A stretch of 64,000 bases of DNA from Bremerella sp. TYQ1 (GTDB lineage Bacteria > Planctomycetota > Planctomycetia > Pirellulales > Pirellulaceae): contig NZ_CP083740.1 in the NCBI RefSeq assembly GCF_020150455.1, forward strand, positions 1,054,001 to 1,118,000. Direction: 5' to 3'. This document shows positions 48,117 through 59,074 of this stretch, in pieces. The notes beneath the pieces were generated by a model, which saw only the letters and a program-made list of their open reading frames with translations, had not been told where the DNA came from and made no database searches. Position numbers and translations under genes: made by a program. Every line of letters starts with the position of its first letter. The stretch's first letter is position 1.

Positions 48117-48174
48117 CGTATTTCGCCTGAGCTTACTGTGACGAACAAAAATTATGCCTCCGATTTTCGACTGC

Positions 48175-48203
48175 TTGACAAATTGTGTACGTATGTACAT
48201 ATT
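48175..48203 (+). promoter_or_regulatory. imuA promoter with palindromic operator in the spacer
   Basis: TTGACA (48175-48180) and CATATT (48198-48203) are 17 bases apart. Between them is TGTAC-GTAT-GTACA (48186-48199), a 5-4-5 palindrome in the place typical of a repressor site. LexA usually controls imuA-imuB-dnaE2 operons, so a LexA-like site is the main guess. The site is not a match to the enterobacterial or Bacillus box. Confidence 0.5.
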
Positions 48204-48225
48204 CAGTGTCGAGGATCAAGCAACG

Positions 48226-48945
48226 ATGAAGGACATGCATTTTAACGGATCGACAAACGTGATTGCCCATCTCCAGGAGCAGATTCGTTCTTTAGAGAGG
48301 GGGACATGTTCCACCGAAACGACTGTCCGAGGAACTGGGTTTCATGGCCTGAATGACTTGTTCCCCTCACAAGGTATTCGCCAAGGGAGCCTTGTTGAAT
48401 GGATCAGTAGCGGATCGGCTAGTGGTGCTGGAACGTTATCACTTTTGGTGGCTCAGCAAGTCGCTCAAAAGAAGTCTCCTATCATCATTGTGGATCCTGA
48501 ATGCCAGACTTATCCTCCTGCCTTATCCGCATCAGGCTTTGACCTTTCTCGCGTTGTGATTGTGCGACCTGCCTGTAAGCGAGATGTGCTCTGGGCATGT
48601 GAAGAAATACTGCGCTGTCAGGCAGTTGGATTAGTCTGGATGCAAGTTGATCATTTATCTTTGACTGCCGCGAGGCGTTTGCGTTTGGCCGTGGAGAAAT
48701 CGAAGGTCATTTGTTTTCTCGTACGTTCTTCTATTGCATTACGTCAAAGCTCTTGGGCCGAAGTGCGCTTGCTGGTTTCATCATTACCAGCATCGGATGA
48801 ATCACCTCGCTACCGAATTTCGGTTGCTTATTGCCAAGGAAAAACGGCGAGTTCGTCTGTGGATATCATGATTAGTAAGCATCGAGGTTCGATCGATGAC
48901 TCCCACCAGCTTGCCACCAAGAATTCTCTGTTGTTGGTTTCCTGA
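48226..48945 (+). CDS. imuA: ImuA, RecA-like mutasome component
   Basis: A 239-residue ImuA-family protein related to RecA/SulA, part of the damage-induced mutasome with ImuB and DnaE2. ATG 48226 follows GAGG and the candidate promoter; an in-frame start at 48154 is rejected. RecA-like features are GFHGLNDLFPSQGIRQGSLVEW and strands IIIVDPECQTYPPA and VVIVRPACKRDVLWACEEIL. The Walker A loop is degenerate (SGSASGAGTLSLL), as usual in ImuA. The gene overlaps imuB by 50 bases. Confidence 0.9.
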   Translation: MKDMHFNGSTNVIAHLQEQIRSLERGTCSTETTVRGTGFHGLNDLFPSQGIRQGSLVEWISSGSASGAGTLSLLVAQQVAQKKSPIIIVDPECQTYPPALSASGFDLSRVVIVRPACKRDVLWACEEILRCQAVGLVWMQVDHLSLTAARRLRLAVEKSKVICFLVRSSIALRQSSWAEVRLLVSSLPASDESPRYRISVAYCQGKTASSSVDIMISKHRGSIDDSHQLATKNSLLLVS

Positions 48946-50434
48946 CTGGTCCATTCAGAGGCTTATCTCTCAAGAATCAGACCTTGCGAACTGTCTGCTG
49001 ATTCTTACTGAGAGTACCAAGAAGGGAGATTTCGTCTATCAATGCAATGCATTGGCAAAGCAGTTCGGAATTGTTCCTGGAATGCCTGTCTCTGAAGCGG
49101 AAACGTTTGCGAAGTCGCACAGAAGATTCGTAAGTCGACCGTTGAATTTTCTTCAGGACAGTACAGCGCTTGCCGACTTAGCGGTGATATGTGAGGCATA
49201 CAGTTTTCGTATCGGTTTGGATGAGTCAGAATCTCCTGAATGTTTATTAATGGATGTTACGGGAATTGCTCACTTCTTTACAGATGAAATAACTCTAATC
49301 AAACACTTACAAAAGGAGCTTTCAGCCCAGAGACTTGTCTCAAAGGTGGCAATTGCCAACACAATTGGAATGGCTTGGGCGGTTGCCCATAGTCTTGGTG
49401 ATCGCTGCTCATCGCGAATAATTCTCACGGAAAGTAACAATGATGTCTGGGCCAATCTTTCTATTGAAACACTAAGAATCCCTAATGAAACTGCGGTCAA
49501 GCTAAATCGGCTTGGCATTCGGACAGTGGACCAACTCATGAGATTAGACCGGGCATCGCTTTGGGCACGGTTTGGTGACGAGCTACTGAAACGCATTGAT
49601 CAGCTGACAGGCAATCGACAAGAATTCATCACACCTGCCCGGCCGTTACTCCGTTTCGTGATTAAGCAATCATTGGAGCATGGTCTCACTCATGCAGAAT
49701 CGATCGAACGATTTTGGACGACTGCTCTGAATAAATTGATTGGTCTTCTCATTCCCAAGCGGCTAGGTACCCAGAATTTGTGTTGTCATTTCTTCACTGA
49801 AGACGGGAAGTGTCACGAAATAAATGTTCGACTTTGTACACCTCAGGCAAACGTTGGTAGCCTGGCAGATCTTATCCGTTTGCAATTGGAAAATCAGCGA
49901 TGGCAAACTCCTCTTGTAGGAGTTGAACTAGAGGCCTTGGAGGTCTCTCCAATTCTACATCTCCAAGATGAAATCATTTCGGAAGTAAGGCACGAACAGA
50001 ATCGTCAATTTTTACAGTTGCTGGATCGTCTATCTAACCGTCTGGGAAAGGATGCTGTTGCCCGCCCGGTGCTTCGTTCCTGTCACATTCCTGAGCTTGC
50101 TTATCGTTTGATTCCAGTAACTAAAGAAAAAAACATTTCCCAAGAGCCTACCAAGTTGTTTCCCTTAGACCGGCCTCCCGCTTTATTTTCTAAACCACGG
50201 CCAGTCGACGCGATTGCTGTTATTCCAGAGGGGCCGCCAAAAGTATTATTTTGGAAATCTAAACGTCTTCAAATTACTCGTAGTTGGGGGCCTGAACGAA
50301 TTGAGTTTGGCTGGTGGCTAGGCCTAGCGGTTCGGCGAGATTATTACCGCGTTACAACGGTCGATGGACAAAAATTATGGGTGTTTCGTCGACTCCAGGA
50401 TGATTGCTGGTTTTGGCACGGGGAGTGGTTCTGA
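48896..50434 (+). CDS. imuB: ImuB, inactive Y-family polymerase homologue
   Basis: A 512-residue Y-family-like protein that serves as the hub of the ImuA-ImuB-DnaE2 mutasome. It opens LCCWFPDWSIQRL where active Y polymerases have the first catalytic Asp pair, and the second acidic motif is replaced, so it should not polymerise. GMPVSEAE, the HhH-like IPNETAVKLNRLGIRTVDQLMRL and the family C-terminus GPERIEFGWW and LWVFRRLQDDCWFWHGEW are present. Its TGA shares one base with the dnaE2 ATG. Confidence 0.93.
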   Translation: MTPTSLPPRILCCWFPDWSIQRLISQESDLANCLLILTESTKKGDFVYQCNALAKQFGIVPGMPVSEAETFAKSHRRFVSRPLNFLQDSTALADLAVICEAYSFRIGLDESESPECLLMDVTGIAHFFTDEITLIKHLQKELSAQRLVSKVAIANTIGMAWAVAHSLGDRCSSRIILTESNNDVWANLSIETLRIPNETAVKLNRLGIRTVDQLMRLDRASLWARFGDELLKRIDQLTGNRQEFITPARPLLRFVIKQSLEHGLTHAESIERFWTTALNKLIGLLIPKRLGTQNLCCHFFTEDGKCHEINVRLCTPQANVGSLADLIRLQLENQRWQTPLVGVELEALEVSPILHLQDEIISEVRHEQNRQFLQLLDRLSNRLGKDAVARPVLRSCHIPELAYRLIPVTKEKNISQEPTKLFPLDRPPALFSKPRPVDAIAVIPEGPPKVLFWKSKRLQITRSWGPERIEFGWWLGLAVRRDYYRVTTVDGQKLWVFRRLQDDCWFWHGEWF

Positions 50435-53400
50435 TGCAATATGCAGAACTTCATTGCTTAACGAACTTCTCGTTTCTGGAGGCAGCTTCACACCCAGAAG
50501 AGCTGGTGGCCCAGGCATCTGCATTGGGATATTCAGCATTAGCCATTTCAGACCGCAACACGTTGGCCGGAATCGTTCGAGCTCATACTGCAGCCAAGAA
50601 CCATTCTCTCAAGATCATTATCGGCTCTGAAGTTCGCCCCAGTGATGGATCTCCTGTCGTACTCTGGGCTACCAATCGCGAAGGCTACGCAAACCTATGT
50701 CGTTTAATTACGTGTGGCAGACGCAAGGCCCCTAAAGGGGAATGCCTAATTACAGTTGACGATATTGCCAAGCATACCGAGGGACTTCTAGCAGGGGTGA
50801 TTCCCACAAGCAAAGCATGGTCTTCTGGAAGCCAGCATGATTTATTTCGATATCGCGATATTTTCGGCAGTTCATCATATTTGCTGGCCGAACTATGTCA
50901 CGGGGCTCATGACCACGAGAGACTTGCTTGGCTTTGGGAATGCTCGCGTAATACCTCTTTACCTTTGGTAGCCGCGGGGAATGTTCTTTTTCATGTCCCA
51001 ACTCGTAAGCCATTGCACGATGTTCTCACAGCAATACGCTTACGAAGTTCAGTTGCGCAAATCGAAGCTTATTTAGAGCCTAATGCTGAGCGACATCTAA
51101 GGCCGTTGGAGCGTCTAAAGACAATTTTCAAGGATATTCCGGAGGCGGTGCATCGGACTCAGGAGATTGCCGAACGCTGTCAATTCTGTCTAGATGAACT
51201 TCGCTACGAGTATCCCGAGGAACTTGCTCCCTCTGGCCTGGCCCCCATTAAGTATCTACGCCAGTTAACGATGCGTGGAGCAGCTGAACATTATCCTGAG
51301 GGCATTCCTCAGAAAGTTCAACGACTATTAAATCACGAACTACAGCTGATCGAAGACTTGCAGTATGAGCCTTACTTTCTGACGGTTTGGGACTTAATGC
51401 GTTTTGCTCGTAAGCAAGGAATCTTATGTCAGGGGCGCGGGTCCGCGGCAAACTCGGTCGTCTGTTTTTGCCTAGGAATCACGTCGGTTAAGCCAGACCG
51501 CATTAACGTATTATTCGAACGATTCGTAAGCCGCGAAAGAGATGAAGCTCCCGACATTGATGTCGATTTCGAGCATGAACGCCGCGAAGAAGTTCTGCAA
51601 TACATTTATAAGAAGTATGGGCGAGACCGAGCTGGGATTGCAGCCGTAACGATTACATACCGTCCGCGTTCTGCAATTCGAGATGTCGGTAAAGCTTTAG
51701 GTTTATCACTCGATCTGGTCGATCGGTTAGCCAAAAACGCAGATCATTACCGTTCGACAGATGATTTTTCCAGTCGCTGCCGTGAAATGGGCTTAGATGA
51801 TCAGTCAGATTTAGGACGCAAGTTTTTATATCTCGTCAAAGAATTGATCGGCTTTCCTCGCCATTTGTCTCAGCATACCGGCGGCATGGTCATCACTCGT
51901 GGCCCTTTGCATGACTTGGTCCCTATAGAAAACGCTGCCATGAAAGGAAGAACCGTCGTCCAGTGGAATAAAGATGACCTGGATGACTTGGGAATCTTGA
52001 AAGTGGACTGTCTGGCTTTGGGAATGCTTACCGCCATTCGCAAGATGTTTCAGATGGTTGAAATCAATACAGGCAATAAATTGACACTTGCCAACATTCC
52101 TGAAGGGGACCAAAACGTTTACGGCATGATTAGCAAGGCTGACACCATTGGTGTATTTCAAATTGAAAGCCGGGCTCAAATGAGCATGCTTCCCCGGCTA
52201 AAGCCACAATGCTATTACGATTTGGTCATCGAAGTTGCAATCGTACGCCCAGGTCCAATTCAAGGAGATATGGTCCATCCATACTTGCGACGAAGACACG
52301 GGGATGAAGAGATTACTTACCCCAATGAAGCGATTCGTGAAGTGCTAAAAAAAACGCTGGGTGTTCCACTTTTTCAAGAGCAATGCATGCAGTTAGCAAT
52401 TGTTGCGGCTGGATTTACTCCTGGCGAAGCTGATCAACTTCGCCGTGCCATGGGAGCTTGGCGACGTCCCGGCATCATCGATCAATTTCGACAAAAACTG
52501 CTCGATGGAATGCGAGATCATGGCTTAGAGGGGGAATTCGCGGAACGTGTCTTCCAGCAAATCAGAGGCTTTGGTGAATATGGGTTTCCTGAGTCCCACG
52601 CCGCGAGCTTCGCTTTACTCGTTTATGTTTCTGCTTGGCTGAAGCATTATTACCCAGCCGAGTTTGCGGCATCCATTATAAATAGCCAGCCGATGGGGTT
52701 CTACGCGCCTGCTCAACTTATCGGTGATGCCAGAAAACACAAAGTCAGCGTACTTCCCATTGATATAAATCGTAGCCATTGGGACTGTACGATTGAAAAC
52801 AATGGTATTCGTCTGGGGTTTCGGCTCATCGGTGGCCTGTCAAAACCTGTCGCCGAAACAATTATCAAAGAGCGTCTTCTTGAGCCGTTTACTTCGATAA
52901 CAGAGTTAGTTCAAAGAACGAATCTTTCCCAGTCACAAGTCGAGCGATTAGCAGATGCCGACGCATTGGCAAGCTTACAAGGATCGAGGCGAGATGCTCT
53001 TTGGAATGCCTTTGCCGTGGATGATTCACTAAGACAACGTTGGCTCTTCGAAGATTCCGGTGAATCATCAGAGCCCTCGGCTAGGTTGCCAGTTATGTCG
53101 CCGGAAGAAGAAGTCTATGCCGATTATCGATCGACCGGCCTGTCTCTTCGCTCGCATCCCATCGCTTTTCAGCGAGAACGATTAAGCAAGTTAAGAATCA
53201 AAGCTGCAGACAAACTAGCTGACCTTCCCAATAACTCCCCAGTTCAAGTTGCTGGAATTGTCTTACTTAGACAACGCCCCAGTACAGCAAAAGGCATCAC
53301 TTTTGTCACTCTGGAAGATGAAACAGGTAAAATGAATCTAGTTGTACATCAAAAAACCTGGGATCAATTCCGAAAGGTCACGCGACATAGCCAAGCTTGG

Positions 53401-53517
53401 ATTGTCTTCGGAAAACTTGAAAAGAAGGACAGCGTGATACACGTGGTTGTGCGACGACTAGAAGATATGTCTAAGGCACTATCCCGACTCAATTTAAAGT
53501 CTCGAGACTTTCGCTAA
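50434..53517 (+). CDS. dnaE2: Error-prone DNA polymerase DnaE2 (ImuC)
   Basis: A 1027-residue C-family polymerase that carries out mutagenic translesion synthesis with ImuA and ImuB. ATG 50434 overlaps the imuB stop by one base; GGGAGTGG precedes it. The N-terminal PHP domain (YAELHCLTNFSFLEAASHPEELV, GYSALAISDRNTLAG) leads to the palm (GILCQGRGSAANSVVCFCLGIT, PDIDVDFEHERREEV with catalytic Asp residues). Then come the fingers (YFPAEF-like YYPAEFAASIINSQPMGFY), HhH, and an OB fold (AKGITFVTLEDETGKMNLVV). Confidence 0.96.
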   Translation: MQYAELHCLTNFSFLEAASHPEELVAQASALGYSALAISDRNTLAGIVRAHTAAKNHSLKIIIGSEVRPSDGSPVVLWATNREGYANLCRLITCGRRKAPKGECLITVDDIAKHTEGLLAGVIPTSKAWSSGSQHDLFRYRDIFGSSSYLLAELCHGAHDHERLAWLWECSRNTSLPLVAAGNVLFHVPTRKPLHDVLTAIRLRSSVAQIEAYLEPNAERHLRPLERLKTIFKDIPEAVHRTQEIAERCQFCLDELRYEYPEELAPSGLAPIKYLRQLTMRGAAEHYPEGIPQKVQRLLNHELQLIEDLQYEPYFLTVWDLMRFARKQGILCQGRGSAANSVVCFCLGITSVKPDRINVLFERFVSRERDEAPDIDVDFEHERREEVLQYIYKKYGRDRAGIAAVTITYRPRSAIRDVGKALGLSLDLVDRLAKNADHYRSTDDFSSRCREMGLDDQSDLGRKFLYLVKELIGFPRHLSQHTGGMVITRGPLHDLVPIENAAMKGRTVVQWNKDDLDDLGILKVDCLALGMLTAIRKMFQMVEINTGNKLTLANIPEGDQNVYGMISKADTIGVFQIESRAQMSMLPRLKPQCYYDLVIEVAIVRPGPIQGDMVHPYLRRRHGDEEITYPNEAIREVLKKTLGVPLFQEQCMQLAIVAAGFTPGEADQLRRAMGAWRRPGIIDQFRQKLLDGMRDHGLEGEFAERVFQQIRGFGEYGFPESHAASFALLVYVSAWLKHYYPAEFAASIINSQPMGFYAPAQLIGDARKHKVSVLPIDINRSHWDCTIENNGIRLGFRLIGGLSKPVAETIIKERLLEPFTSITELVQRTNLSQSQVERLADADALASLQGSRRDALWNAFAVDDSLRQRWLFEDSGESSEPSARLPVMSPEEEVYADYRSTGLSLRSHPIAFQRERLSKLRIKAADKLADLPNNSPVQVAGIVLLRQRPSTAKGITFVTLEDETGKMNLVVHQKTWDQFRKVTRHSQAWIVFGKLEKKDSVIHVVVRRLEDMSKALSRLNLKSRDFR

Positions 53518-53567: not shown

Positions 53568-55193
53568 TTAGCCTAGCGATTCATACGCTAATCGTAGCTT
53601 ATTGCCTTGCTCTGGATTTACCATTTCAACGTAGGCAATCATGCCAGCTAGCCAGGCAGAGAAATTTGGATGGCCTAGTCGATTTTGTTTTTCGAGGCCT
53701 TCAAACTTGGCTCGATGCAAAATTGACCGTAGCTTCCGAATCGTTTTTCGATCGATCGACGCCTTGTCGTTAACGATAATTCCCGTCACTGATTGCTGCG
53801 AATTCTTCCTAAGAACACGTGTTTTAGACTCCTTTATCTGGAAACCCTCTTCCGACGTTACGTGACGAACACGGGCAAGGAGGTAAGCCACTTTATCTTC
53901 ACGGTCACTACAAGAAAACGAAAGATCATCCGCGTAGCGTGTGTAACGCCATCCGATTGAGTTTGCGATGCCAAACAAACGCTTATCCATTCGCCGTGAA
54001 ATCAAGTTCGAGATAGCGGGACTTGTACAAGCTCCTTGCGGCAGCGAGCGATTGCCTACCGCAACGTAGAGTGTTGTCTTCCCCGAGCGTAAACGCATGC
54101 GAGGAGATTCGGTTGTTAGCAGAGCCAGAATCGTGGCGACGGCCGGAGAATATCCCAAGCCCCTAAATAGCCCGGCGACTCGCGCAAAATCGATTGTCGG
54201 AAAGAAGTCTTTTAAATCAACATTTACTAGTACGCGAGACCCAATGTGCGGCTTCGCTCCGGTGAGAGTGCTTCGACTTGGAACAAAACCGTGAGCCGCA
54301 TCATGCAAGGGAACCTTGCCAAGAATATTATTAAGAATCCATCGCTGAGCATTGGCGAGCTTGGAATGGGGGCAGCAAATGGTTCGCTCACCTCCAGAAC
54401 TTTTTTGGATCTTCCACCAGTGATAGTGTGTCGTCCTGCTGGCAGGATGATGAAATGCGAGCCAGCGAAGCGTGCCTATCGATACATCCAGTGCATCTGC
54501 AAGATCCGCAGGTGAGGAAAGAAGGGGAAGTCTACAGGCTTGCAATCTTTCGATATTGGATCGGCGGTCTGCGAGACCCTTCGATACGCCACGTCCTAAA
54601 AAAACGATGTCTGTTGCTTTCCGTTTCGCAACGGCTTCCTCGTGAGCCTGTTTGCGTTGCTCGGCAAGTCGCTTGAGTTCAGCTTTACGTGCCGCTTGGG
54701 CATCCCTCGACGATTGAACGGCTTGTTGGCCTGCAGCTTGAATCGCGTAGTAGTCGGTTCGGAACTGCGACATCTGCTCGCCGACATCGTGGATCTCAGC
54801 AAGTTCCTCCGCCGTAATTAGCCCCATGCCGACCATTGTCTGATCGATTACGCGAATGCGCGGGAGCGAAACAGAAGGAATCACGTTTAGAGGGTCAAAG
54901 TAGGCTGTCTTCCAACTTGGGTCAGACGTCGCTTCCAATGCGTCGTCGTGCGAAATCGGCTGAAAGCGAGATGCGTCCAACCCAGATAGTTCACTTTCAG
55001 GGGGAGGACTTGGCGACGATGTCGTCGGACGCGATGCGGCAGGACTAAATTCAGACGCCTGACCGCTTTCTGATGGTGGAGACAAGTTTCGCTGTTCAAC
55101 CGACGATGGATTGTCCGCGGTTGATTTTGACTGAGTGGCAGAATGAGATTCATCGAATCCAAACAGTCGTTTCAGATTTTGAAAAAATCCCAT
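53568..55193 (-). CDS. Retron-type reverse transcriptase with long N-terminal extension (Mx162-like)
   Basis: A 541-residue reverse transcriptase. Residues 1-70 are a Ser/Pro-rich tail, about 70-130 a small folded region, and about 130-180 a charged helix (DAQAARKAELKRLAEQRKQA). The block LGRGVSKGLADRR and the segment LADALDVSIGTLRWLAFHH precede the RT core: AAHGFVPSRSTLTGAKPHIG, VNVDLKDFFPTI, LPQGACTSPAISNL, YTRYADDLSFS (YADD at 420-423) and QSVTGIIVNDK, the VTG of retron RTs. The extension and core resemble the myxobacterial Mx162/Sa163 RTs as I recall them. It has no maturase or DGR features. The msr-msd ncRNA lies directly upstream. Confidence 0.93.
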   Translation of the reverse strand: MGFFQNLKRLFGFDESHSATQSKSTADNPSSVEQRNLSPPSESGQASEFSPAASRPTTSSPSPPPESELSGLDASRFQPISHDDALEATSDPSWKTAYFDPLNVIPSVSLPRIRVIDQTMVGMGLITAEELAEIHDVGEQMSQFRTDYYAIQAAGQQAVQSSRDAQAARKAELKRLAEQRKQAHEEAVAKRKATDIVFLGRGVSKGLADRRSNIERLQACRLPLLSSPADLADALDVSIGTLRWLAFHHPASRTTHYHWWKIQKSSGGERTICCPHSKLANAQRWILNNILGKVPLHDAAHGFVPSRSTLTGAKPHIGSRVLVNVDLKDFFPTIDFARVAGLFRGLGYSPAVATILALLTTESPRMRLRSGKTTLYVAVGNRSLPQGACTSPAISNLISRRMDKRLFGIANSIGWRYTRYADDLSFSCSDREDKVAYLLARVRHVTSEEGFQIKESKTRVLRKNSQQSVTGIIVNDKASIDRKTIRKLRSILHRAKFEGLEKQNRLGHPNFSAWLAGMIAYVEMVNPEQGNKLRLAYESLG

Positions 55194-55204
55194 GATGAGA
55201 AATA

Positions 55205-55430
55205 TGACCGGAGCGGGTGACGAAACAACTTCACGTCTGCGGACCGAGGTCGTTCACCAAGGCCACCACTACCAGGTAGTGTGTCAAAAGCCTCGGCTTG
55301 TCCTGGTTGACGCACTACCTGGTAGTGGTGGCCAAACGAACAACGACCTTGGGGAAGAATGGGAAGCAAAACTCGACCGCGGCGGATCGCCGCAGCAAGG
55401 TAGTCTTGAATCGTCACCTCGCTCCCGTCA
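55205..55430 (-). ncRNA. Retron msr-msd noncoding RNA with a1/a2 repeats
   Basis: On the minus strand this 226-nt unit starts with a1 (55430-55411, TGACGGGAGCGAGGTGACGA) and ends with a2 (55223-55205). The two pair over about 18 positions with one mismatch and one bulged A. Inside, a GC-rich msr hairpin has stem CTGCGGCG / CGCCGCGG with loop ATC (55395-55377), followed by a pyrimidine-rich linker and the long msd hairpin (55352-55244). The RT start codon is 12 bases after a2. The order a1-msr-msd-a2-RT is that of known retrons. The branching guanosine cannot be fixed by eye. Confidence 0.9.
55244..55352 (-). repeat. msd long hairpin with 21-bp perfect arms
   Basis: Arms at 55261-55281 and 55313-55333 are perfect 21-bp reverse complements. 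The stem extends inward by GTCAA/TTGAC (55283-55287 with 55307-55311) to a small AAGC/GCTT hairpin. Outward, across an internal loop, 55244-55254 pairs with 55342-55352 (one G.T). Each arm contains a 15-bp palindrome, CACTACC-A-GGTAGTG (55267-55281) and CACTACC-T-GGTAGTG (55313-55327). Confidence 0.92.
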
Positions 55431-55441
55431 TGAATCCTTAG

Positions 55442-55470
55442 TTTGTAGGAGTTAATGGTTGTGATTTCAA
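55442..55470 (-). promoter_or_regulatory. Putative retron promoter
   Basis: On the minus strand TTGAAA (55470-55465) and TACAAA (55447-55442) are 17 bases apart. The expected start of transcription falls at about 55435, a few bases before a1. This suggests the retron can be transcribed independently of the SWIM gene. Confidence 0.5.
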
Positions 55471-55536: not shown

Positions 55537-57204
55537 TTAAGCCGACACTTGTCGCTGGTTATGAATCATTCGCAATGCCTGAATATGTCGACAGGGACCA
55601 TTTCGAATTCCGGATTTGCGATGCCAGCCACAAATGCACTTTCCGCGGCGTGTTATTCCATCTCCATCAATCAATGTCTCGCAGTCAATTCCGTCTACTC
55701 TTCCAATTAAAATTGTCCCGCTACGTGGACCCACCATCGCTTCGCGAATTCGAGCCTTTTTAGACTTTGCCAATTCTTCAGCAGCTCGTAATTCGGGGTG
55801 AGGAGGAGCGATCTCCTTATCTGAAAGCGGAAGTGGCAAAATGCTTCTCCAGCGATACAGACCAGCATGCAAGTCAAAGATCACTTGCCCCCGCAAAGCT
55901 AATTCGTTGAGTGCAGAAGTTGTCACCTCTTTGGATAAATAAGCACTGCCCACAACTGTTTCAAGCGATGCGGCCCCTCGAATACTCAACGTCTCGGCAA
56001 TAGAAGCGACGGCGGTCGGTCGTGCTTTTTCCTGCGGCATTAGCATGTCAATCGCGCTTCCTGCCGACCAGTCATTGGTCGTCCAACCACTGAGACCTAA
56101 CGTCAAACGCATAGCTCCCATGCGAACAACCCAAAAACTAGGGAGCCCGGTTCCTAGCAAATACACGTCCACTTTGTCAGCAATTGGTAGTAGGCGCGAT
56201 AAAGTTAAAAGTCTGCGACGTCCCCAGATTCGGATCGGTTCACATGGGGGGCCGTCGTAGATTGCACCGTTGGCCTCGATCGGCTTTTCCCAAGGTTCAA
56301 GCACAAGTCGCGGTGTTTGGCCGGGCGTCAACTCAAATCGAATCGCTCGCGGGCTTGCACGTGCCTTATTTCGCTTAATAAATGCCAAGAGCGAATATAC
56401 GGCTGCTACCGGGAGAGAAACCTTCCGCATTGGCATCGCCATGGCTGATTGCAAGCGAACGAATCCGCTTAGCCATCCATCGGGCAACTCAATCTTTTCT
56501 TCACGATGCTGATCTCCGCCTGCTTCCGTAGAAACTTCAAACGCAGTTGGATCAATTTGAAATCGAGTTTGCCGATAGGTTCGCAGGGATTGAAAACTGT
56601 CATAGAGGTCCCACGAGTAATCTACATTGGTTGTGCCAAGTTGGGTCTGACCTGATTCGCCGAAGCCATCGCCTCTATCAACCGTTAGGCATCCGTAGCT
56701 CGATTGATCTACTGAGAAGCATTCAAAAAACACGACATCATCCGCCACGGTGATCACCGGGTCATACGGCATCAAGCGTCGCCATAGCTCTTTATTTTCT
56801 TTTCTAAGCTGGCGATCTAGAGATTTGCGAGCAGCCCAATATTTCTTTAGTGCGGCCGTATGAGCTGTTTTAAGTTCCGATGATGGCTTATCGACGTTGC
56901 CTTGCCGAATGGCCTCTCGTTTTTCATCGATCGCAGATCGTCGAATCACCTGTTCGAGTTTACGCTGATCGGCTTGCCATTGTTGATAGGAGGACTTATC
57001 ACGCGGCTCAAATCGCAGATCATTAATGACTACATCGTGCAAAGCACTGATTGCCTCACGGAACTCGAGCGGCCGTTTTAAGGCAGCATCGAACGCAACT
57101 TGTTCCCTGACTAAATTAGGCGCCAATTGAAGAAGCTTTGCTCCCCCGGAGACGTCGAATATCCCACTCCGACCGGCATACTTCATACTTACGTTCATTT
57201 CCAT
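55537..57204 (-). CDS. SWIM zinc-finger protein
   Basis: A 555-residue protein with a C-terminal SWIM zinc finger (CICGWHRKSGIRNGPCRH, pattern CxC...CxH). The N-terminus MKYAGRSGIFDVSGGAKLLQL and a middle charged helical region (KKYWAARKSLDRQLRKENKELWRRL) resemble SWIM proteins of the YehQ type. The SWIM finger is a predicted DNA or protein binding module. The gene lies 46 bases after a HEAT-like gene on the same strand and 106 bases before the retron a1. The function is unknown. Confidence 0.82.
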   Translation of the reverse strand: MEMNVSMKYAGRSGIFDVSGGAKLLQLAPNLVREQVAFDAALKRPLEFREAISALHDVVINDLRFEPRDKSSYQQWQADQRKLEQVIRRSAIDEKREAIRQGNVDKPSSELKTAHTAALKKYWAARKSLDRQLRKENKELWRRLMPYDPVITVADDVVFFECFSVDQSSYGCLTVDRGDGFGESGQTQLGTTNVDYSWDLYDSFQSLRTYRQTRFQIDPTAFEVSTEAGGDQHREEKIELPDGWLSGFVRLQSAMAMPMRKVSLPVAAVYSLLAFIKRNKARASPRAIRFELTPGQTPRLVLEPWEKPIEANGAIYDGPPCEPIRIWGRRRLLTLSRLLPIADKVDVYLLGTGLPSFWVVRMGAMRLTLGLSGWTTNDWSAGSAIDMLMPQEKARPTAVASIAETLSIRGAASLETVVGSAYLSKEVTTSALNELALRGQVIFDLHAGLYRWRSILPLPLSDKEIAPPHPELRAAEELAKSKKARIREAMVGPRSGTILIGRVDGIDCETLIDGDGITRRGKCICGWHRKSGIRNGPCRHIQALRMIHNQRQVSA

Positions 57205-57250: not shown

Positions 57251-59074
57251 CTATTCCTGCCACTGCCATTCCGAAATAACGCCTTCAACCTGGGCTGCCA
57301 AAGTGGGATGCTGGCTGATGATCGTTGCTAGTCCGGATAAACCGGCAGCCTTTTCGGGATCACGGATGGAACGTGCTGCGATTGCCAATACGGGGATTAC
57401 AACGTCGGACTTCTCAGGATTACGGATTGCAAGGGCCGACAGTTGATTAATGGCTTTCGGCTTATTGCGTGAACCTCGATTGACACAAAGAACAACTGCA
57501 GAAAGGATTCGTACGTATTGATCGACGGAGATCGACTCGTCTATCTGCTCTGGAGTTTTATCCAGGAAATCCCCAAGCAAATCGAGCAACGAAAACCTTA
57601 CTTCATCGTAGGGAGTTTCAATGAGCCTGAGCCAAAGATGAGGATCATGTTGCGTTGGTAATGTTTGATCCGATATTTTCGACGTCAGAACACTAGTCAG
57701 CCACTGACAAGCAGAAAAACGAATCGCCGCAGACTTAGCGTCAAAGAACTCCGACAAATATTCCGCTGAGTATCGCTCTGGCTGTGTCAGTTCGACGATG
57801 GCCCAGTCGGCAATCGCGTTCGCTTCCCATTCACATCGTGCCGAAGCAAGTCTGCGCAAATGGTCGGTACTTAGCGGATGCTGTTCATGCCGTTGTTGGA
57901 GCCAAGCTAGACCCAGTTTTGCAATGGAAGCAGGACGAGCAGTCGTTAAATCAACGAGTTGTTCATCACTCAGGCGAGCAGGGTCAATACTGCTTTTCAT
58001 TGCCTCACAGATGATTGGAAGAACAGAAAACTCGGCACCATCTAACAGACTCAGCCAAGTTGCGATGTCGACTTTAGACAACGATCGATGTTTTTGAAAT
58101 AGCTCGACCGCGAACTCTGCGACCGTTGCGTTCCCACTAGAAAGCAGTGGAATCAACTCATGAATTGAAACATTTTCCAGCCACGCTCCGTGAACATTGC
58201 GAAGCATCTCGATTGTCCACATTCGCACGAATTGACTTCGAGCATTCGCCAATAGGTTCCAGAGTTTCGAAGCAGTTGAGCTTATCGTCCATGCTTCCGG
58301 CCGGTAAGGCGCGGCTTTCAAAGTTGCCAGCGATTGGCCACGAACAATATTGGTATGAGATTCGGTAAAAGAAATCTCCGGTGCGCAAAAATAACACGCG
58401 TGCATCAACGACCAGTTGTCGAGGATCGCTTCTCCTGAATCAAAAAACGAATCTTCGTAAAGTGCCAATGCTGATGTGATCGCCTCGACATAACGTTCGC
58501 TATCTTGATACGCCATGAACCGGAAGTGGCGCCAGATACGTCTTCGCAAATAGAATCGGGTTCTTTGCGAGAACAACCGGTTGCGGGCACGATTCCGAAT
58601 ATCAGGTAGAGATACGCGTACTTTACGTCCGAGGTAAGTGTATTCTTGAAAGCGATTAGTTTGATCACGAACGGTTTTGTTGGGGCAAGCGAATAAATAC
58701 TCACGAACAAAGGACTGTCGCACGCGATAGCTATACGAATAGGTCTTAATTCGACTACGACGAACTAATCTATCCAGCATGACCATGTGATGAATCAGTA
58801 GCTCATCGTCCCCTTTTTCTAGGGCTGACTTCATTGTCTGCTTAACAACGACTTCATGCCCGGGAAAATTGAGCGGTAACTGCAAGTAGCGCAACAACTG
58901 CTTGCGGGCCCATGGACGCTGATCAACGATCCATTGATTCGAGAAGGTTTTAAGGAACTGATAAGAGTCGAACTGAATGAAGATATCGAGAAAGCGATCG
59001 TCTTCGCTTGCGAATAATTCCTCCAGCAATATCTTCGATGGCCGGGAGTTACCAGACGCGATGCTTTCCGCCAT
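57251..59074 (-). CDS. HEAT/ARM-like helical repeat protein
   Basis: A 607-residue soluble, all-helical protein with repeated helix pairs in the C-terminal two thirds (VSIHELIPLLSSGNATVAEFAVELFQKH, PASIAKLGLAWLQQRHEQ, DEVRFSLLDLLGDFLDKTPE). The N-terminal third is Arg/Tyr-rich and basic (RLVRRSRIKTYSYSYRVRQS, RFYLRRRIWRHFRFM), which would suit nucleic-acid or acidic-protein contact. No enzymatic motif is visible. Pairs of SWIM and HEAT-like proteins occur in other bacteria near MoxR/VWA genes; those are absent here. It starts the presumed two-gene unit with the SWIM gene. Confidence 0.72.
   Translation of the reverse strand: MAESIASGNSRPSKILLEELFASEDDRFLDIFIQFDSYQFLKTFSNQWIVDQRPWARKQLLRYLQLPLNFPGHEVVVKQTMKSALEKGDDELLIHHMVMLDRLVRRSRIKTYSYSYRVRQSFVREYLFACPNKTVRDQTNRFQEYTYLGRKVRVSLPDIRNRARNRLFSQRTRFYLRRRIWRHFRFMAYQDSERYVEAITSALALYEDSFFDSGEAILDNWSLMHACYFCAPEISFTESHTNIVRGQSLATLKAAPYRPEAWTISSTASKLWNLLANARSQFVRMWTIEMLRNVHGAWLENVSIHELIPLLSSGNATVAEFAVELFQKHRSLSKVDIATWLSLLDGAEFSVLPIICEAMKSSIDPARLSDEQLVDLTTARPASIAKLGLAWLQQRHEQHPLSTDHLRRLASARCEWEANAIADWAIVELTQPERYSAEYLSEFFDAKSAAIRFSACQWLTSVLTSKISDQTLPTQHDPHLWLRLIETPYDEVRFSLLDLLGDFLDKTPEQIDESISVDQYVRILSAVVLCVNRGSRNKPKAINQLSALAIRNPEKSDVVIPVLAIAARSIRDPEKAAGLSGLATIISQHPTLAAQVEGVISEWQWQE

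What the first reader, a model, noticed from the sequence alone, without database searches (positions are those of the whole stretch)
53568..55470. Complete planctomycete retron: promoter, a1-msr-msd-a2 and an Mx162-like RT
Seen: an RT with YADD and VTG motifs; directly upstream on the same strand, two imperfect inverted repeats (55411-55430 and 55205-55223) enclosing a GC-rich hairpin and a 109-nt hairpin; a promoter-like pair just before a1. Known: this is the order of retrons, in which the RT copies msd into branched msDNA. The RT extension and core resemble the myxobacterial Mx162 type. Inferred: a functional retron in a lineage where few have been characterised.
Basis: partly seen in the sequence, partly recalled or inferred. 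Interest (0 to 1): 0.87.

Follow-up and report, generated by a model that had tools for sequence, protein, structure and literature searches.

The report
Type XIII retron with clamp-like partner

Summary
The retron is real as a sequence feature. The RT (53568-55193, minus) scores best as PADLOC RT_XIII; the a1-msr-msd-a2 RNA upstream (55204-55436) folds far better than shuffles and its msd covaries strongly in relatives. So this is a HEAT-SWIM-[ncRNA]-RT type XIII retron, a new member of a known kind. Myxobacterial RTs belong to the same family; Mx162 itself could not be tested.

The parts
57251..59074 (-). HEAT/ARM-repeat accessory protein, 607 aa
   Evidence: PADLOC HEAT-ARM_XIII 707 bits; AF2 model pLDDT 88.5, mostly helical repeat, HEAT/ARM scaffolds as generic matches; Pfam HEAT_2 in 12 of 36 relatives at E<=0.1 but not in this protein
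55537..57204 (-). SWIM accessory protein, 555 aa: PCNA-like fold + winged-helix-like segment (named by me from the helix order and weak MarR/HTH hits) + SWIM zinc finger
   Evidence: PADLOC SWIM_XIII 585 bits; AF2 model pLDDT 82.7, pTM 0.79; Foldseek and VIA matches to PCNA; single-member HTH hits
56080..57096 (-). PCNA-like region, residues 37-375 of the SWIM protein
55585..55638 (-). SWIM zinc-finger motif CxCxnCxH, residues 523-540
   Evidence: pattern present in 49 of 51 relatives; Pfam SWIM matches 23 of 51 members at E<=0.1, not this protein
55442..55470 (-). promoter-like pair TTGAAA-17-TACAAA just before a1
   Evidence: read by eye and in 3 of 4 sequences of A5; strict scan negative
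55204..55436 (-). retron ncRNA (a1-msr-msd-a2)
   Evidence: fold z -10.9; profile built from 22 loci including this one
55411..55430 (-). a1 inverted repeat
   Evidence: pairs with a2; arm-swap tests
55404..55407 (-). conserved AAGA at the inner end of a1; candidate branch G at 55405
   Evidence: [AG]AG[AC] in 63 of 63 ncRNA hits tested, chance 0.18 each; branch role inferred from CAGC/GAGC/CAGA in known retrons (PMC6868368 passages)
55377..55395 (-). msr GC-rich hairpin
   Evidence: 8 pairs, 100% of cells paired in 22 sequences, 2 pairs with double changes, 4 never vary
55241..55354 (-). msd long hairpin (template for msDNA)
   Evidence: helix 3: 20 of 20 pairs with double changes, 92.4% of cells paired
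55204..55223 (-). a2 inverted repeat
   Evidence: pairs with a1
53568..55193 (-). retron reverse transcriptase, 541 aa, with N-terminal extension of about 210 aa
   Evidence: RT_XIII 517 bits; RVT_1 4e-21; Ec86 RT E 9.5e-38 over residues 213-497
53925..53936 (-). YADD catalytic motif
   Evidence: invariant in the 22 sequences of A1
54246..54260 (-). region X, GAKPH here; consensus NAxPH in relatives
   Evidence: A1 consensus; NAXXH named in PMC6868368
55155..55193 (-). RT N-terminal amphipathic motif MGFFQNLKRLFGF, followed by a variable linker
   Evidence: similar hydrophobic/basic pattern read by eye in the 22 sequences of A1; role unknown

Best explanation
A type XIII retron operon: HEAT/ARM protein, SWIM/clamp-fold protein, ncRNA, RT. 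Shown by sequence: gene order, RT family, conserved and covarying ncRNA, co-occurrence of RT and SWIM. Inferred from known retrons: the RT primes at the G of the conserved AGA next to a1 and copies the msd hairpin into branched msDNA of roughly 110-150 nt, and RT and msDNA stay bound. Inferred, less sure: RT-msDNA holds the SWIM (PCNA-fold) and HEAT proteins in an inactive complex; a phage that alters the msDNA or the replication machinery frees them, and they block DNA replication or transactions, so that the infected cell does not yield phage. The parts need not be encoded side by side and act in trans.
For: RT_XIII 517, SWIM_XIII 585, HEAT-ARM_XIII 707 bits. Of 42 window-like RT loci with at least 5 kb upstream, 35 have both HEAT and SWIM, 1 SWIM alone, 6 neither. 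Among 392 genomes sampled in the phylum, 21 have RT_XIII at 415 bits or more, 20 SWIM_XIII at 390 or more, 18 both; all 9 with HEAT-ARM_XIII are among the 21 (my tally, cut-offs chosen after seeing the lists). ncRNA covariation. ncRNA found in 50 of 58 window-like loci, 18 of the 50 being in the profile itself. PCNA-like fold. RT-SWIM pairs of 7 genomes judged unlinked co-diverge: mean rho 0.865 against 0.883 for linked pairs, 0 of 2000 random partnerings as high.
Against: No msDNA, toxicity or defence has been seen; the mechanism is by analogy. The putative inner-face helices of the clamp-like fold are not clearly basic (family net charge -0.4, -1.3, 0.4, 2.3; helix assignment mine), so it may not encircle DNA. 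Co-divergence alone would also follow from vertical inheritance. The wider a1/a2 swap test is weaker than the first: own arm better than every foreign arm in only 34 of 63. Region X has G where most retron RTs have N. No enzyme domain was recognised in either partner.
Confidence: 0.8

Rival explanations
1. A retron that serves the host's own DNA metabolism: msDNA and the clamp-like protein act in repair or replication control rather than as a phage-triggered toxin system.
For: PCNA-like fold; parts persist when scattered among chromosomal genes, for example the ncRNA beside what I read as pyruvate kinase and peptidase genes in G201, which is unusual for a mobile defence cassette; imuA-imuB-dnaE2 mutasome next door in the window.
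Against: Patchy distribution (25 of 392 genomes); apart from a weak sulfatase match in one, none of the seven flanking genes tested lies at the retron loci of two same-genus relatives, so the imu neighbour looks accidental.
Confidence: 0.15
2. The operon is a remnant: RT or ncRNA no longer makes msDNA.
For: N to G in region X of the RT.
Against: All three ORFs are open, YADD and VTG kept, a1/a2 and msd pair well; Mx65 and Ec48 also lack that N (PMC6868368 passages).
Confidence: 0.05
3. The RT is a group II intron, DGR or DRT-type RT and the hairpins are unrelated (terminator or regulatory RNA).
For: The RT domain alone is shared by all; one terminator-like site.
Against: Retron models outscore group II and DRT models by far; ncRNA found by profile in 50 of 58 window-like loci.
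Confidence: 0.02

Closest known systems
Retron type XIII (PADLOC-DB RT_XIII, SWIM_XIII, HEAT-ARM_XIII; classification of Mestre et al. 2020, recalled, paper not held)
   Same: All three proteins are strong family matches, on one strand in a row.
   Different: Planctomycete subgroup with its own ncRNA family; the PCNA-like fold, the shifting ncRNA position and the dispersed forms were not found described in the papers searched.
Myxobacterial retrons (Mx162, Mx65, Sa163 group)
   Same: Extended RT N-terminus (PMC6868368 passages); a Myxococcus sp. RT is RT_XIII; the Archangium-labelled MAG locus L091 has HEAT-SWIM-ncRNA-RT.
   Different: Best arm pairs in L079 and L080 span 36 and 33 positions against 20-21 in the window; Mx162 itself not compared.
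PCNA / 9-1-1 sliding clamps
   Same: Predicted fold of SWIM residues 37-375.
   Different: No sequence match, putative inner helices not basic, extra C-terminal segment and SWIM finger; oligomer state unknown.
Retron Ec86 (Eco1)
   Same: Closest solved RT (7v9u, E 9.5e-38).
   Different: The match covers residues 213-497 only; the N-terminal extension here is outside it. Ec86's partner is a different protein (recalled).
Retron-Nex1 (Ne160)
   Same: msr-msd copies without an RT within a kilobase (PMC6868368, section 9) resemble the RT-less ncRNA loci of G201 and G204.
   Different: There several repeated copies; in G201 and G204 one copy was found by the searches made.

Membership tests
Retron | RT of the retron kind with YADD, region X and VTG | tested here: met
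   region X is GAKPH, not NAxxH; no tree with group II or DGR RTs was built
Retron | a1-msr-msd-a2 ncRNA with long-range pairing | tested here: met
   weaker
Retron | production of branched msDNA | not testable with these tools
   needs nucleic acid from cells
Retron type XIII | RT of the RT_XIII family | tested here: met
   517 bits, next best RT_other 369
Retron type XIII | SWIM and HEAT/ARM (or WGR) partner genes | tested here: met
   585 and 707 bits; that these define the type is taken from PADLOC names and recall
Retron type XIII | anti-phage activity | not testable with these tools
   no experiment; none found for this type in the papers searched
Mx162-type myxobacterial retrons | RT grouping with the Mx162 RT | tested here: inconclusive
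   Myxococcus sp. P0151 is in the same PADLOC family and within the ncRNA-bearing part of the tree; Mx162 not identified
PCNA sliding clamp | clamp fold | tested here: met
   predicted model only:
PCNA sliding clamp | PCNA sequence profile | tested here: not met
   no PCNA family among the Pfam, PHROGs and NCBIfam matches of 51 members at E<=0.1, none among PDB sequences at E<=10
PCNA sliding clamp | basic inner-face helices, DNA-encircling ring | tested here: inconclusive
   putative inner helices not clearly basic, helices assigned by order only; ring not tested

The most novel reading that the evidence does not exclude
Type XIII retrons are clamp-coupled retrons: the SWIM protein is a PCNA-fold clamp or clamp mimic that works with the RT-msDNA complex (perhaps docked by the RT's conserved N-terminal peptide), senses or jams a replication fork, and the system runs in trans, so that in some planctomycetes RNA, RT, clamp protein and HEAT scaffold are inherited together while encoded at two, three or four separate places in the genome.
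Probability: 0.45. Interest if true: 0.82.

Novelty: new member of a known kind. Interest (0 to 1): 0.6.

Why it matters
No mechanism for type XIII retrons was found in the papers searched. A PCNA-type fold in a bacterial retron partner gives a concrete idea of what these systems act on (replication forks or DNA ends) and makes it testable. Dispersed retrons would mean that neighbourhood-based defence finders miss them and that RT and RNA recognise each other in trans, which also matters for retron-based tools. The alignment defines an ncRNA family; the window gave no match at Rfam's gathering cut-offs.

Tried and rejected
Rfam: no family at gathering score in the window; with a loose threshold only microRNA precursor models matched the msd hairpin, below their cut-offs, rejected as chance matches to a long stem.

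Promoter scan negative.

New partner genes for RTs without HEAT/SWIM nearby: among the neighbours of L037, L039, L044 and L054 that I scanned (ten proteins, one of them an RT of the window's genome), Pfam names RlaP, MreB, sulfatase, enolase-like, ABC-2 and DCC1-like genes and nothing for two; no effector shared by all was seen; rejected in favour of HEAT/SWIM elsewhere in the genome.

Contig breaks that only look like dispersal: G206/L051 (ncRNA starts at the end of the HEAT-SWIM contig), G481, probably G205/L053 (RT at a contig end, HEAT near another contig end, no SWIM found); not counted as dispersed. G202/L054 inconclusive (SWIM fragment at a contig end, no HEAT). G198, G200 and G203 probable, not clean; they are among the 7 pairs.

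The exact core pattern is not fully specific: besides the places that make sense it matched two other places in G199 and one in G203, and it missed the ncRNA of G201, found later by DNA similarity.

Wider arm-swap test: 29 of 63 loci had at least one foreign arm as good; longer GC-rich arms pair unspecifically, so the first test (18 of 22; one failure, L049, looks like a misplaced anchor) and the column covariation carry the claim. a1/a2 did not line up in the MAFFT alignment, so columnwise covariation was shown for msr and msd only.

Mx162 by name: two protein searches list Myxococcus sp. and Pyxidicoccus but no Mx162 among the 120 rows each.

Literature: Mestre et al. 2020 is not held. Searches for retron + type XIII, SWIM/WGR, XIII, unlinked ncRNA, sliding clamp, SWIM + PCNA listed no paper on the mechanism by title; one paper merely names a type XIII retron found by PADLOC in Variovorax (passage). 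PMC12548924 and PMC13405049, seen in passages, do not contain 'XIII'.

Full report
Observation. The minus strand 55200-55436 folds at -127.8 kcal/mol against -76.5 +/- 4.7 for shuffles. The promoter-like pair is visible but fails a strict scan; a like pair stands in three of the four sequences of A5 by eye.

What was missed. The two ORFs upstream on the same strand are SWIM_XIII (55537-57204, 585 bits) and HEAT-ARM_XIII (57251-59074, 707 bits) in PADLOC, and the RT's best model there is RT_XIII (517 bits; RT_other 369). Pfam lists nothing for either partner at E<=0.01. The locus is thus a type XIII retron with the order HEAT, SWIM, ncRNA, RT. The names of the types come from PADLOC; the paper that defines them is not held.

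Relatives. The protein search scored 2266 RT homologues and lists 120, the nearest named ones being Blastopirellula marina (71%) and Stieleria neptunia (65%). A scan of genome contigs with an alignment of 22 RTs found 270 relatives and kept the best 80. Of these 80, 58 have an RT of 400 bits or more against the window RT. Of the 42 with at least 5 kb upstream, 35 carry both HEAT and SWIM upstream, one SWIM alone, six neither.

The ncRNA family. I looked at 36 upstream regions, the window included, and aligned 22 in which an arm pair was visible. In this set 43 pairs were predicted, 30 of them with changes on both sides; 94.6% of cells pair, against 71.7% for shuffled letters and 31-48% for slid partners; the covariation score is 0.599 against 0.168, while the number of further pair types is barely above shuffles (26 of 500 reach it). 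All 20 pairs of the main msd helix show double changes. Choosing regions with visible pairs favours the result; the controls do not remove that fully. a1 and a2 do not align by column, so I paired each locus's 5' arm with its own and with foreign 3' arms: mean -36.9 against -18.8 kcal/mol, own best in 18 of 22; with wider arms from 63 hits -45.2 against -27.0 (shuffled -27.6), own best in only 34 of 63. A profile of the 22 finds the ncRNA in 50 of the 58 window-like loci; 18 of these 50 were in the profile, and L040 is the same stretch as its member L010, so 31 are independent. They include L079, L084, L088, L089 and L091 (labelled as myxobacteria) and L080 (Deltaproteobacteria). Of the eight without a hit, four (L041, L062, L073, L090) are cut off by a contig end before the expected place, two (L047, L066) have it elsewhere in the genome, two (L070, L081) are unexplained. 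The 22 loci of the 80 with weaker RTs mostly gave no hit. All 63 hits tested (matches that start after model position 33 left out) carry [AG]AG[AC] at the inner end of a1 (chance 0.18 each), the likely branch site by comparison with CAGC, GAGC and CAGA of known retrons (PMC6868368, passages).

Position of the ncRNA. Of the 50 loci with a hit, 29 have it between SWIM and RT; one (L043) has two copies there; 9 have it before SWIM, in 8 of them seen to be between HEAT and SWIM; one (L057) has two copies there; one (L083) has one copy at each place; 9 have ncRNA-RT without SWIM on the fetched stretch.

Dispersed systems. Of the 14 window-like loci without SWIM on the fetched stretch I took ten (L041, L081, L089 and L090 were left out) and searched their genomes: SWIM_XIII in 9 of 10 (8 of them over 500 bits, one an edge fragment of 92 bits), HEAT-ARM_XIII in 8 of 10, and a single RT over 500 bits in each. 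G198, G200 and G203 are probable; G202 is unclear; G205 and G206 look like contig breaks. The contigs of each of the four clean genomes resemble each other in tetranucleotides (r 0.94-0.985) more than contigs of different genomes do (mean 0.81). These are MAGs, so binning errors are not fully excluded. In quick trees (SH-aLRT only) the unlinked RTs and the unlinked SWIMs fall in corresponding places. Distances of 7 RT-SWIM pairs judged unlinked (the four clean and three probable genomes) to 56 linked loci correlate at mean rho 0.865; linked pairs 0.883; random partners 0.44 on average, 0 of 2000 sets reach it. Vertical descent alone would give such congruence; with the patchy distribution it still suggests that the parts are kept together.

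Co-occurrence. In 392 sampled genomes of the phylum, 25 have RT_XIII at E<=1e-110, 23 SWIM_XIII and 9 HEAT-ARM_XIII at E<=1e-30; in each genome only the best 3 or 4 candidates of the first look were scored. At 415 bits or more for RT (21 genomes) and 390 or more for SWIM (20), 18 have both; RT without SWIM: G217, G350, G474; SWIM without RT: G324, G369. All 9 HEAT genomes have the RT, 8 of them also SWIM. One RT of the 21 (G313) holds several stops. I chose these bit cut-offs after seeing the lists.

Mechanism. Retrons are described as RT-ncRNA-DNA complexes that hold a toxic effector until a phage trigger (start of the abstract of PMC12548924 in the listing). By analogy I propose that RT-msDNA holds the SWIM and HEAT proteins and that release harms replication. 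The clamp fold makes DNA replication the likely point of contact. This part is inference.

Context. The operon's GC (HEAT 0.482, SWIM 0.500, RT 0.508) is like the window's 0.50. Of seven flanking genes tested none lies at the retron loci of two same-genus relatives, apart from a weak sulfatase match in one. The imuA-imuB-dnaE2 genes downstream are convergent neighbours (the names imuA and imuB are mine).

Verdict. A sound retron of a known type in a planctomycete, more complete than reported; the clamp-like fold and the dispersed relatives are what a specialist would find surprising.

Noticed in passing
L043 7215-7698; L057 351-837; L009 3312-3883; L083 5094-5258 and 7025-7238: Two ncRNA copies: in tandem, or (L083) one on each side of the SWIM gene.
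   Followed up: partly
L124 8364-8572 and L066; L142 8190-8406 and L047: ncRNA encoded on another contig than the genome's only strong RT_XIII.
   Followed up: partly
window 48154-53517: imuA-imuB-dnaE2-like mutasome genes convergent to the retron; an accidental neighbour as far as tested.
   Followed up: partly
L002 1039-2349, L003 1117-2862, L004: Three more RTs in the same genome: one RT_other/outgroup (488 bits), one RT_UG36 (454 bits), one (L004) not typed.
   Followed up: partly
relatives: RT_XIII hits in 197 relatives fall into a strong group (over about 430 bits) and weaker ones, many near 320 bits; most of the weaker RTs put in the tree form a separate branch with the host's own second RT.
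   Followed up: partly
G087, G314, G322, G197:C105: Weaker SWIM_XIII-like proteins (144-176 bits) whose matches lack the first about 100 model positions; the first three genomes have no RT_XIII at E<=1e-110.
   Followed up: no
P0238: RT of this family with Pfam PF05406 (WGR, name recalled) in the same protein.
   Followed up: no
window 55155-55193: Conserved N-terminal amphipathic motif of the RT, a possible docking peptide or membrane helix.
   Followed up: no
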